NCBI GenBank assembly: GCA_947034885.2
Contig: OX344756.2
Span: forward strand, 24,101,489 to 24,165,488
From: Thuidium tamariscinum
Lineage: Eukaryota > Streptophyta > Bryopsida > Hypnales > Thuidiaceae
DNA length: 64,000 bases
Direction: 5' to 3'
Below are positions 48,977 to 57,900 of this stretch, piece after piece. Each line of letters opens with the position of its first letter. Position 1 is the first letter of the stretch. The notes under the pieces are model-generated. The model did not search any database and was not told the DNA's origin. It was given only the letters and a program-made list of their open reading frames with translations. Both the position numbers and the translations under genes were made by a program.

Positions 48977-51900
48977 ATGCCGATGGAGTCGGTCCCATGG
49001 CTATTGCAATGGAAGCTCGGGTCGTTGCTATTCTTGCTGCTCAGCTTCTTCCATTGCGGCCCAGTTTTGGCAACTCTAGAACAAGGTAATTATTCTCCCT
49101 CGGCTTGCAATTCTTAACTCAAAGCTCCAGGGTTTGTTACGGAGTTTTCCCTAGTGCTAGAGGAAGCATGCGATTCGTCCTGTTGACAGCAAGCATTTTG
49201 GAACCTGGGAAGGCTGGATCGATCAGTTCAGAGTGTGCAAGTCGTTGGGGTACTACCCAGTTCTAAGTCCAAAATACACGGAATCTGTTGAACAAGAGGT
49301 TTTTGCTACTTATTCGAATTCACATCTTTTGTAATTAAACATTTGCTCCTTGTAGAAGTCACTCACAGCACGCCAACCTGTAACGTACGTAACAGCATGG
49401 AAATGGTTTGAGCATGGTTCTTATAAAATTGGACCTGTAAGACATTAGAGAAAATCTGGACTCTATACAAGGTTTGACAAGCCATTCTCTATGGAGAGCT
49501 GTACCATGCTAAAAAGAGTACAAGATCTATGATGAAATCGAGTTTCAGCTTGTCTGAATATTTTCACTGTCAACTAGAATATGTCAGTTTCCCTCAAATT
49601 GAATACCAGTGCTTGTGTACCAAGGGTCCAACATTTGGTTGCACCATTGTACAGATGACACTTGGTGCACCATAACTATAGGAGAAAAATTCTTGCCCAT
49701 GACAAATAAATATAATCTTGGGCCCTTTTGGCACTTCTAAGCAGCCCTCTAGAGAGTCCAGATTTCCTCTAATGAGTTTGTGTTGGGTCTTCTTGCTAGT
49801 CTGAAGGGGATTCTAAACTCTTAAAACATATTCTTGAGACGCGCCATGATGTTGCAAAGTGCTAAAAATAGGTTGATTCATAATCATCCGTAGACTATCA
49901 TGAATTAGAGCTGAACATTCCAGGCAATCACGAATTTGTAGAGTTCAGTTCAAAACAATGAACATTCAAGTCACAGTTGGTTGTATCACCGTAATGAATG
50001 CTATTTTGTGTTTGTGCCATATAACATAATTTTAGAATTGAGTTCGCCAATAGTCCTCCGAAGCTTTAATCAGGGCAGCTGATGGAAGAACGAACCACTC
50101 CACCAGAGTTACATCTAAACCTAATCCGTGCATGCCCCCAATGGGAGGTATTCTAGACCTTGTGTTTCATGCTCCGCATTTTACAGCTTGTTATAAAAGT
50201 ACATACAATTAATGCCGTAGTACTTCTTTTTGAAAATACTATTACTGTCTGATACAGTTTTGGGACACAATTCTGATATCACCTTCAAGTTTGTGCATGC
50301 AAGCTAGCTCTGCGTGAAGTGCAGGGTTTTAATTGTTGCTGTTTTGTGTGCAGGCGCTATCTTGCAGGAAGTGAAAAACTCCGGATGGATAACCATAGGC
50401 CGTGCTTCCTGGATTCCCGGCACAGACCCTTGCGTCAGTGTATGGGAAGGCGTTGATTGTTTATCGGGCGATGTCGTCCTTTTGTGAGTTCATGGATCAC
50501 CAAATCTGACTCCCAATCTGCAGCTTACGAAACAATCTTTAGCTAGAGTTCTTAGCTCTCAATTGGAGGTTGCTTGGGACCGTACCTTAATATGTTTTTG
50601 ATAAGGGCATATTAGAATTGGCCCAACTTTCAAAAGTGCGAGTCAGGATGTTATGTGCGGCATAACATCCTGTAATCTGAGAAATTGACAAAACCCTAAT
50701 CACTACAAGTTTATGTGAGGACTTCGGTTTCTTTTGAAGTTCATGAGAACAAAATAGAATCTCGGCAAAATAATGATGCCGGTATTAGCCTTGATTTGAC
50801 TAGTGGTTCCATGAATATATACTGAAGCTCACGAATATCAATGCAATGCTGATATTTTAGGAGTCCAAAGTCAATTGGGGTGGAATTCCACTACTCAGGC
50901 ACTTTTTTTCAGGGTGCGCGGTCTGAAACATAAATCAGTCTATACCAGTCCTACTTCCTCGAGTTTTTGCGTCTAGATGAGTGTCACGGCAGTTTTCGGT
51001 GCCTGCCATTGTGCCAATCGGATGAATGTGGGTAGTGTACGTGCCTAAAGAATGTTCTGCCGGTGCATGATACCAGGAATTTGACCCATGTGGGGTTACT
51101 TGGACCAGTGCCGGAGGCATTGGGAAGACTCACAACTCTGACTCAACTAGACATGGGGAACAACAAAAATTGTAAGAATTGCTCCGCATGGAACCAAGTG
51201 ACCGGTGACCTCGCTCCGGTTGCAAATCTGGTGAACCTGAAGTTTCTGTGAGTGAGCCTTACTTGAATTTCTGAGCTTGATTTAATGGTTCACAGCTAAT
51301 GCCAGTGCCTGAGATGATTGTTGTGTTTCTTCTCCCAGAAGTGAATTTAGAACTTCCAGCATGTCTTCATGCTTGCTTCCATTGACTTGTTTCATTGCTT
51401 GTGGCCGAATCCAGATGTTTGACATCAAATGAGATGCAGATTTCTACTTTCCCCAAGGCCATATTTCAGCTCAAGAATATTGTGGACTTGTAAGCAAATT
51501 GATCTAGCTGTGCTGTTGCCACAACCCATACTTGGTTGTGTCGGCTGCTCAATCGAGGTGTCCGTCTCTGAGTTTTCTTGGTGTTAGAGGGTTATATAAC
51601 ATCATGTAGCTACGTGGTATGGGACCAGGCTGTGATTTCAATGTCCAACCAGTTATGTCCAATTTACGTCTTGACTCTCCTGGTACTTCACTGGTTTCCG
51701 TCTCGTTCATTTTAGGGTTTGGTGCTCCTGAGATGCTTTCGTTTTGGAGTTTCCACTGTAACGTGACTAAGTTATATCCCTGTCTCACAGGAGAGTTGAC
51801 AACACCCTGATTGGAGGAAAATTCCCAGTGGAGCTTTCCACTCTCCACAACCTTCAGTATTTGTATGTCCAGCGCACTTGAACATAATTATTTTCTACTC

Positions 51901-54900: not shown

Positions 54901-57900
54901 GGTCCAATCATACCAGTTTTGAGCAACAGCACTGCCCCTGCTTTGAAGAATCTGTAAGAATACACAAATGTGGATACTGTTCAGTTCTGTTGATTATTCT
55001 CACCCCTCTCTTCTAGAGTATCAGGGTTTTAGTCGAATTAGCTAGACTGTTTCAGAAACTCTTTACATGGCGGGGTTGTAACAACCTTCTCCGATCCATA
55101 ATTCGTGACCGGGAGGTCTCTCCTAATGCATGGTGATTATATGGATGCCGGCGTCCCATGAAATACAGAGGAGATTCTCTTTGTAGTTCTATTATTTTGA
55201 AATTCCTGAATCAATCTAATTTGATTATAAATCTTGTTGTTTTTCGGATGTGCGTTACACTCTCAGTTTCTCTACTTGCATGCATGCTTTGTGAGGAAGT
55301 GGAGGCCTAGCTTGCCTTGAGGTTGAAGTTTTCTTGTTCTTACAATGTGCAGAAGTTTGGAGTGTAACTACTTGCAAGGTGCCAGACCCATGGTGCAAAG
55401 TAATATCACGTGAGTGGGGCTCCATTAAAGCATCCTTCCACCACGTTTGCATCTTCTTTCTTCTTTCTTCAATCATACATGAAAATGGAGGTAGCTCGAG
55501 TACACATAAGTCCTTATGTGATGGCAGGGGGATATGTACACATAGGGTTTACTTTACCTGAATTTCGAGGTTAAGAACATGATTCCAACAGTCTGTTAGG
55601 TCAAGTGAGAAATTATGCTGATTGTAACACACAGCAATAATTTGACCTAATTATCGTCCTTGTGAACATTGTCTGTCAGTACTTTCCAATTAGACCTTCA
55701 ATGTTCAACTTTGAGTTTGGCTGAAATCGGCCTCTCTTTTTGACTGTTGCAGAGTCAGCCTGGATAATAACTGCTGGGATAATGAGGCACCTCTGGATTC
55801 TGCCTGTGTCAGAAGTTTAAATTGCTTGAATTTCCAACTCTATACCCGAAACGGTAAGTTAAGTTACTTGCTTCAACGTCCAATGCCAACCCTTGTGTTC
55901 GACTAGATTTTTGCTGAGCGTGGAGTTTGAACTTTCATTGCTGTAGCCTTCTCAAGAGAGTAACTTACTCTGAAGACTTTGTTCTGATAATACCCTGAAC
56001 TGAAAGAAACTCAAGCCCTTCTCGCTGCTTTGTTTTGCAGGACTATGCCCAGCATGTCCCAGTGGACAGCATTTGGTCAACAGCACGACTTGTATCTGCT
56101 TTGGAGGTTAATTTTTTGAAATTCAGCAAGACTGGCTGCTTCCAATTCGCACTTTTGCCAGTTCAATCTTGATTCTAAGAGTCTATCATCTAAAGAATAT
56201 ATGCTGTCCCCAAATCCATGGAACCGATATATGTAATTCACAGAAATTGGGGGAACCAGTGTGGTGGTACCGAAATATTGTGGTTCACATGAAATAGACG
56301 GAACGAGGAGCAGAGAGAAATTTTCTTGGAGAGTTTTAGGATGGATCATTAATCCTCCATTGATTTATATCATTCTTAAAATTTTGATGTGCAGTACCTG
56401 AACACTCCAAAAGGAAGCTTGCCATGGGTGTCATTATTGGAGTGGCACTAGGGACCGCGATTTTGCTCCTTTTCTTACTATCGTTCATCTGGTGGAGAAT
56501 CAGAGGTCGAACCAAAAAAAAACTCGAACCAGACTACTTCCTGTCGGAAGGAGCAGGTAACCAAGAGTTGTAGTATAATGAGAGACGAACTTACCCTCTG
56601 TAGATCAAATTTTTATTTATCAATTAATGTACAGAAAATTCATTTGTAATGCAATCAGTTGAAGTGCCTGGGGAGGTCGTAGATCTATGGCAGGGATACT
56701 AGACGGACATATCCCTTCCATATTAAGTGATCTACAACAACCTCCCGCTTCACAAGATCAGTAGTCATAGACTTGTGAGTTAGCGAAGTTAACTTAATTA
56801 TCACTCTCGACTTGCTAATTGAAGCCCACCAACGTGTATGAATAGCGCAGTCCAGTTCTTTTTGCTACCAAGAGTTGTAGCAAATGAGTCCCCTCCTCAT
56901 TGATTATCGAACGTTTCAGTTCGTTTTAGGGTTAAATAATGTAGAAATGCTCATCAAATGATTTAATTTTTTGTCAATGCTTTTCCTTTCTGTGTGTTTA
57001 GTACTGAAATCATGGCAATGCTTCGATGGTTGATGAGATGATACTGTTCAAAACGACATTCTTCGAGTGATACTTCACTGGGTTTCTTAGCTGGTTTTTT
57101 AGCATTGAACTGACACGAAATTAATTGGTGGATTGACCAGTGAATACTGGAATAGTCAATAGTTACTCAATGCTATAGGAAGTGGGATGATCATGTCCAT
57201 AATTAGGGTTCTTAATTAAACGGTTTACGTATCCTCTACAGTCCATTAGCTGGGTGAAGTTGGGATTGAGAGTCTGATGGTCTTGACTTAATTTGCTGGG
57301 AGCATGCAGGGGGGGTGGAAAGCTTGCAGTCCTGGGAAGTGCCTGGGAATATCGTGCACTTCACTTTCGAGGATCTGAAGAAGGCCACCAAGGGATTCGG
57401 GAAGGCGAATGAGATTGGAGAGGGCGGGTTTGGCAAAGTGTTTCTGGGCACTTTTCCGGGGGGACGGACACTGGCCATCAAACGGGCCGGCGCGACCAAT
57501 TCTCCTGGGCAGTTCAGAAATGAGGTACCTTAACCCACTGGAGTCCTTCAGTACCTGTTTGAATTATTTCTGTGACGAGTTCTGTTACGGATATCAGTTC
57601 GGGCAATGCCCGAGGAGGAGGGGATTGCGCTGAAAAAAGGGTCGTCGAGGAAGGCAAGCCCGACTAGGAGGCCCTTTTCAGCGTCACCCCCGACGACGAG
57701 CGGCATTGTCCGACGTAAGCTGCGGGCGGGAAATCCTCCCGTGAAGAAATCTTTTGGATGAACAGCGTTAATTTCAATGAAAAATGCGTAATGCCCGATT
57801 GCGCGGGCAAAACCGCGTAATCGGGCAGGGAAACCCTACTTCTGGCCCACAATCTGCCCCAAGAATGTACGGGACATTTCCCTCCCGTGGTTCACGACAT

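What the first reader, a model, noticed from the sequence alone, without database searches (positions are those of the whole stretch)
48977..56556. HPCA1-like cysteine module directly against the membrane helix in a compact receptor kinase
Exon 13 (56041-56106) is almost exactly a CxxC...CxC module: C369, C372, C384, C386, twelve residues between the pairs' inner cysteines. In LRR-VIII-1 receptors such as HPCA1 the equivalent pairs are the proposed H2O2-sensing site, and they are followed by a further juxtamembrane extracellular region. Here the next exon goes straight into VPEHSKRK and the membrane helix. The sensor, if it is one, would sit on the membrane surface in an 815-residue receptor. 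The frame holds through all 22 exons, so this is unlikely to be a decayed gene.
Basis: partly seen in the sequence, partly recalled or inferred. Interest (0 to 1): 0.72.

Follow-up and report, generated by a model that had tools for sequence, protein, structure and literature searches.

The report
Plant receptors with membrane-hugging cysteine module
The window holds an intact plant cell-surface receptor kinase, one of at least twelve related genes here, with four fixed cysteines that in the genes modelled sit right above the membrane; it resembles a known peroxide sensor in layout but its kinase lies outside that sensor's family, so peroxide sensing remains a guess.

Summary
The gene has 23 exons with GT-AG introns (48977-61169, +) and encodes 834 residues. 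Exon 14 (56041-56106) encodes [18 protein letters not shown]; a 10-residue linker and the membrane helix follow. A missed exon or decayed gene is unlikely. Five paralogs show the same module-then-helix order, with introns of 134-404 bp between. Twelve genes with an intact module exon have kinases that form one clade (100/98).

The HPCA1 reading is not supported. Nesting the module clade inside LRR-VIII-1 is rejected (p-AU 0.001-0.0025); a sister position is neither shown nor rejected (p 0.18-0.40). Profile comparisons found no significant likeness of the cysteine regions. The clade may be the unassigned eight-gene Physcomitrella clade of Liu et al. 2017; this could not be tested.

Best reading: a separate LRR receptor-kinase family, probably of a bryophyte, with a membrane-proximal, probably disulfide-bonded, cap. 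Redox sensing is possible but untested.

The parts
48977..49085 (+). exon 1: start codon and hydrophobic N-terminal segment (likely signal peptide)
   Evidence: gene model; signal peptide judged by eye
50354..50483 (+). exon 2: LRR N-terminal cap with C63 and C72
   Evidence: both cysteines invariant in 4 of 4 full-length genes
51077..51247 (+). exon 3: first LRRs and a second CxxC pair (C112, C115)
   Evidence: invariant in 4 of 4
51415..54953 (+). exons 4-11 (51415-51489, 51791-51862, 52062-52136, 52256-52327, 53977-54048, 54263-54334, 54494-54565, 54876-54953): LRR exons of 72-78 nt, phase 2
   Evidence: Pfam LRR matches
55353..55409 (+). exon 12: last LRR-like segment with C337
55753..55853 (+). 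exon 13: C-terminal cap with C359, C370 and C376
   Evidence: invariant in 5 of 5 aligned
56041..56106 (+). exon 14: four-cysteine module CxxC-x11-CxC (C388, C391, C403, C405)
56107..56394 (+). intron 14, 288 bp, no room for an HPCA1-type extra extracellular region
56395..56556 (+). exon 15: linker VPEHSKRK, transmembrane helix, basic inner juxtamembrane segment
57310..60068 (+). exons 16-22 (57310-57524, 58128-58202, 58423-58486, 58679-58764, 58968-59113, 59609-59759, 59916-60068): protein kinase domain
   Evidence: Pfam PF07714 E 1.3e-39, PF00069 E 3.1e-39
60939..61169 (+). exon 23: end of kinase, serine-rich tail and stop codon
   Evidence: a matching last exon was found in paralogs C2, C6 and C3, weakly in C4; C5 was not fetched that far

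Best explanation
Shown: the gene is an intact LRR receptor-like kinase and belongs to a clade of at least twelve genes in this genome that carry an intact exon-encoded CxxCP-x2-Q-x7-CxC module. In the six core genes the module lies 10-15 residues from the membrane helix. Inferred: the LRR domain binds an unknown extracellular ligand. The four cysteines, with four more invariant ones just upstream (eight in all, an even number), form disulfide bonds that cap the LRR solenoid and hold its end as a short stiff stalk on the membrane, so that ligand-driven pairing of ectodomains is passed directly to an active RD kinase. The likeness to HPCA1 is one of cysteine spacing and position, by convergence or very old descent, and not one of membership.
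For: Gene model. Five paralogs with the same exon order where found; three of them (C2, C6, C3) complete with 23 matching exons (the search imposed the window's phases and rough exon lengths). Module found in six further relatives. Twelve module kinases form one clade, 100/98 (the same with doubtful letters masked). Among 12 module sequences of equal length, C1, C4, P5, Q8, C16 and C18 never change while the other 12 positions vary, as a disulfide scaffold would. dN/dS over the whole coding sequence is 0.25-0.49 and over the kinase 0.13-0.28 in 6 pairs of 4 genes. Linkers of 10, 10, 12, 13, 15 and 15 residues. Eight upstream-plus-module cysteines invariant in 5 of 5. No Pfam domain reaches its cut-off on the module.
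Against: No structure, disulfide mapping, expression or ligand data. The structural role is inferred from conservation alone; a redox switch would also keep its cysteines, and the invariant P and Q could serve either. The module's own dN/dS is 0.29-2.7 and above 1 in 4 of 6 pairs, over only 22 codons. Genes C4, C5, L053, L054, L060, L061, L063 and L064 were only partly modelled, and the module-to-helix distance was not fixed for the last six.
Confidence: 0.55

Rival explanations
1. Redox sensor: apoplastic H2O2 or quinones oxidise the membrane-proximal cysteines and so activate the kinase, as proposed for HPCA1/CARD1, but with the sensor lying on the membrane surface.
For: Same order as HPCA1: cap pair (C-x10-C here, C-x9-C in HPCA1), then CxxC, then CxC. 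Reviews report that extracellular cysteines of HPCA1 are the sites of H2O2 and quinone sensing (passages read).
Against: No significant profile match between the two regions. The kinase is not nested in LRR-VIII-1. An HPCA1-type gene that keeps its long extracellular region exists in the same genome and could do that job. Structural disulfides explain the same conservation.
Confidence: 0.2
2. Old sister of LRR-VIII-1: the cysteine module is inherited from a common ancestor, and the ~110-130 residue region after it was lost here or gained in LRR-VIII-1. The family would be the unassigned Physcomitrella clade next to VIII-1.
For: Liu et al. 2017 (PMC5296948, passage) report eight P. patens LRR-RLKs as a weakly supported sister clade of VIII-1, left unassigned. 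The sister position is not rejected here (p-AU 0.395, 0.177, 0.184). Cysteine order matches.
Against: The best trees do not show it: they pair the clade with two own-genome kinases, one of them CRINKLY4-like by recall, at low support (36/74, 72/74). Sister positions with SymRK (p 0.424, 0.283) or FERONIA-type kinases (p 0.358, 0.218) are equally allowed. No P. patens sequence could be compared.
Confidence: 0.35
3. Gene-model artefact or decayed gene: a missed exon or pseudogene explains the short architecture.
For: No RNA data; at least one relative (L065) has a stop inside the module exon, so decayed copies exist.
Against: Open frame and GT-AG sites throughout; same layout in five paralogs, four of them with introns under 300 bp at this place; whole-gene dN/dS below 0.5.
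Confidence: 0.03

Closest known systems
HPCA1/CARD1 (Arabidopsis, LRR-VIII-1)
   Same: LRR ectodomain, cap cysteine pair, then CxxC and CxC, single helix, RD-type kinase (helix and kinase of HPCA1 recalled)
   Different: 9 rather than 11 residues between the pairs; about 122 residues rather than 10-15 between CxC and helix (HPCA1 helix part recalled); window kinase outside the HPCA1 clade; no significant profile match of the module
Own-genome LRR-VIII-1-type gene at C6:~1.016 Mb (L030+L051)
   Same: receptor kinase of the same genome with an HPCA1-like cysteine region before the membrane
   Different: Keeps the long region after CxC (about 132 residues, one splice join not verified); C-x4-C spacing; intron inside the GYGK-V glycine loop (by eye) that the window gene lacks; kinase 55.5% identical to recalled HPCA1, 42.7% to the window
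Unassigned eight-gene P. patens LRR-RLK clade next to VIII-1 (Liu et al. 2017, PMC5296948)
   Same: Multi-gene LRR-RLK clade outside but possibly beside VIII-1 (passage read)
   Different: Not comparable here: no P. patens sequences are held; its ectodomain cysteines are not described in the passages and section read
SymRK and FERONIA kinases
   Same: Top kinases in the PDB by sequence, 46.6% and 43.1% identical
   Different: Different ectodomains (recalled); no special tree affinity

Membership tests
LRR receptor-like kinase (general) | extracellular LRRs, one transmembrane helix, kinase domain | tested here: met
   Pfam LRR and kinase matches, hydrophobic helix segment
LRR-VIII-1 (HPCA1 group) | kinase domain inside the LRR-VIII-1 clade | tested here: not met
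   AU test rejects nesting, p 0.0016 and 0.0025, 0.0019 and 0.0012; HPCA1 kinase row recalled; sister position not rejected
LRR-VIII-1 (HPCA1 group) | long extracellular region between CxC and the membrane helix | tested here: not met
   10-15 residues in 6 of 6 core genes against about 122 (HPCA1) and 132 (own LRR-VIII-1-type gene)
LRR-VIII-1 (HPCA1 group) | homologous CxxC...CxC cysteine region | tested here: inconclusive
   same order of cysteines; hhalign probability 1.2%, E 0.044, aligned outside the module; for the 3 HPCA1-type sequences 100, 397 and 1849 of 2000 shuffles score as high; the reverse HMM scores 6 of 6 family members below zero; few sequences, low power
LRR-VIII-1 (HPCA1 group) | subfamily gene structure, 18 or 19 introns (Liu et al. 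2017) | tested here: not met
   22 introns here; no intron at the glycine-loop position present in the own LRR-VIII-1-type gene; intron positions elsewhere were not compared in full
LRR-VIII-1 (HPCA1 group) | activation by H2O2 or quinones | not testable with these tools
   needs wet-lab assay
Unassigned P. patens clade next to VIII-1 | kinase grouping with those eight genes | not testable with these tools
   no P. patens sequence held; only the description in PMC5296948 was read

The most novel reading that the evidence does not exclude
A multi-gene receptor-kinase family of an early land-plant lineage in which a thiol-redox switch sits on the outer membrane surface, arisen independently of HPCA1 or before it, giving these plants a set of extracellular redox receptors with separate LRR ligand domains.
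Probability: 0.15. Interest if true: 0.75.

Novelty: new variant of a known kind. Interest (0 to 1): 0.42.

Why it matters
How plants sense extracellular H2O2, and which cysteines do it, is an open question resting mainly on HPCA1. A multi-gene family with the same cysteine layout but without the long region between module and membrane is a natural test of whether the cysteine module alone can act as a sensor. It may also give a describable extracellular trait to an LRR-RLK clade that has been noted in a moss but left unassigned.

Tried and rejected
Missed exon: rejected, since intron 14 is short in 5 of 6 core genes and read-through meets a stop after one codon. Its longest stop-free stretch, 61 codons, was not compared with HPCA1 by a search. 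Pseudogene: rejected for the window gene.

Pfam on the module alone and with its flank gave no match above cut-off; three sub-threshold matches (Hyd_WA, E 0.05; CC domain, E 0.052; DUF240, E 0.36) were not followed. In the same call a CRINKLY4-like control peptide from L012 gave a sub-threshold TNFR match; I had mistyped its first eleven letters, which lie outside the matched stretch. PDB searches gave the HPCA1 ectodomain entries 21az, 9vbd and 9vbv, but the best stretches to the window protein (182-338 or 187-338) lie in the LRRs only. Paper searches for HPCA1 kin, this family or its module showed in their capped listings only the Liu et al. 2017 paper as a match. Of the papers opened, passages alone were seen except for PMC5296948 (abstract, outline, passages and one section). 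An attempt to name the species did not identify it.

L062 covers the wrong side of its gene and was not used. L066 carries another type of kinase, with no module in the 6 kb fetched. A further relative at C2:26475381-26475830 (one stop) was not fetched. Eleven long-branch or redundant rows of the first kinase tree of 33 were dropped and four added before the second tree of 26.
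Full report
What is there. The gene at 48977-61169 (+) splits into 23 exons with GT-AG introns and an unbroken frame and encodes 834 residues: signal-like N-terminus, LRR N-cap, LRRs in exons of mostly 72-78 nt, a cysteine-rich end, one membrane helix, a kinase domain and a tail. Exon 14 (56041-56106) encodes [18 protein letters not shown], with C388, C391, C403 and C405. After the last of them come a linker of 10 residues and the helix.

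It is a family. A search of the same genome with exons 13-15 found the same exons elsewhere. I fetched those places and modelled them by matching each window exon; the search imposed the window's phases and rough exon lengths, so the agreement in phase is partly by construction. Paralogs on C2 (839 codons with stop), C6 (839) and C3 (841) are complete with 23 exons; those on C4 and C5 are partial, and in C4 exons 11-13 were not found. In the five the module exon is followed by the helix exon after introns of 244 (C2), 277 (C6), 134 (C3), 189 (C4) and 404 bp (C5). A 27-residue module query found these five plus the window and nothing else. More distant relatives found through the kinase were fetched. 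Of nine such loci examined, six carry an intact module (L053, L054, L060, L061, L063, L064), L065 has a stop in it, L062 covers the wrong side of its gene, and L066 holds another type of kinase. That makes twelve genes with an intact module exon. Of the 18 module positions, C1, C4, P5, Q8, C16 and C18 are invariant in 12 of 12. The number of genes is a lower bound. For the six outer members a helix-like stretch follows the module, but the exact distance was not fixed.

It is under constraint. Whole-gene dN/dS is 0.25-0.49 and kinase dN/dS 0.13-0.28 over six pairs of four full-length genes. The module alone gives 0.29-2.7, above 1 in four of six pairs, but 22 codons are too few to interpret.

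Relation to HPCA1. The HPCA1 ectodomain is in the PDB (21az, 9vbd, 9vbv). It has CxxC-x9-CxC followed by about 122 residues before the helix (helix part recalled). The window's genome also has a gene with an HPCA1-type cysteine region and the long region after it (C6:1.016 Mb); its kinase is 55.5% identical to recalled HPCA1. The window kinase is 46.2% identical to HPCA1, 46.6% to SymRK and 43.1% to FERONIA, so it shows no special closeness. In the kinase tree of 26 rows the twelve module kinases form one clade (100/98), and HPCA1 with the own LRR-VIII-1-type gene another. Forcing either of those two into the module group alone is rejected (p-AU 0.0016, 0.0025). Joining both as sisters is not (0.177; 0.395 in the first tree of 33 rows). 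Some hand-assembled rows held guessed letters at exon joins; with these masked the result is the same: clade 100/98, nesting p 0.0019 and 0.0012, sister p 0.184. SymRK (0.424, 0.283) or FERONIA-type sisters (0.358, 0.218) are not rejected either, and the best trees pair the clade weakly with two other own-genome kinases. A further test, joining LRR-VIII-1 with only the six core genes, was rejected (p 0.000135), as expected if the twelve are one clade.

The cysteine regions themselves were compared by profile. hhalign gave probability 1.2% and E 0.044, on a 31-column stretch before the module. A family HMM scored HPCA1 at 2.6 bits, matched or beaten by 100 of 2000 shuffles; the two own-genome HPCA1-type sequences did worse (397 and 1849 of 2000). 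The reverse HMM scored six of six family members below zero. With so few sequences this is weak evidence against homology, but there is none for it beyond the order of cysteines.

What is known. Liu et al. 2017 (PMC5296948; abstract, outline, passages and section 12 read) found eight P. patens LRR-RLKs that form a weakly supported sister clade to VIII-1, left unassigned, and suggested that they either evolved in P. patens or were lost in vascular plants. The window family fits that description, which is a lead and not a test. Reviews (passages only) state that HPCA1 senses H2O2 or quinones, most of them naming its extracellular cysteines. The original papers of Wu et al. and Laohavisit et al. 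were not read.

How it probably works. Shown: intact receptor kinase, family, invariant cysteines, short linker in the six core genes. Inferred: the module and the cap cysteines are disulfide-bonded and form a stiff stalk between LRR domain and membrane; the LRRs bind a ligand; the kinase signals. A redox-switch role is possible and cannot be excluded. That the plant is a bryophyte is an inference from the divergence of its LRR-VIII-1-type gene and from the Liu et al. remark; the species was not identified.

Verdict. A real and conserved architecture, correctly spotted, in a separate LRR-RLK family. The HPCA1 membership claim fails on the kinase, on the length of the region before the helix and on gene structure. 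The idea that it could act like HPCA1 is untested.

Noticed in passing
L029+L052 (C3:31636000-31643025, minus strand): An HPCA1-like cysteine region with its long following region is coupled to a kinase of a different type (the label LRR-VIII-2-like is recalled; its kinase grouped with another own-genome kinase, L019, at 80/89, both on long branches), which suggests ectodomain-kinase reshuffling.
   Followed up: partly
window 51077-51247 (C112, C115): A second CxxC pair inside the LRR domain, invariant in 4 of 4 full-length genes.
   Followed up: no
window 57321-57349 and 57934-57962: Inverted repeat of 29 nt, 97% complementary, between the start of exon 16 and intron 16.
   Followed up: no
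window 56650-56680 and 57325-57355: A 31-nt stretch in intron 15 is 74% identical to the start of exon 16, perhaps a remnant of a duplicated exon or chance.
   Followed up: no
window 53660-53925: Intron 7 carries a dispersed repeat of about 265 bp with 41 further matches listed in the genome, 39 of them at 91-94% identity (lower bound); a similar stretch stands upstream near 44100-44385 by eye.
   Followed up: partly
L065 (C9:18786300-18792400): A relative with a stop codon inside the module exon, so some family copies look decayed.
   Followed up: no
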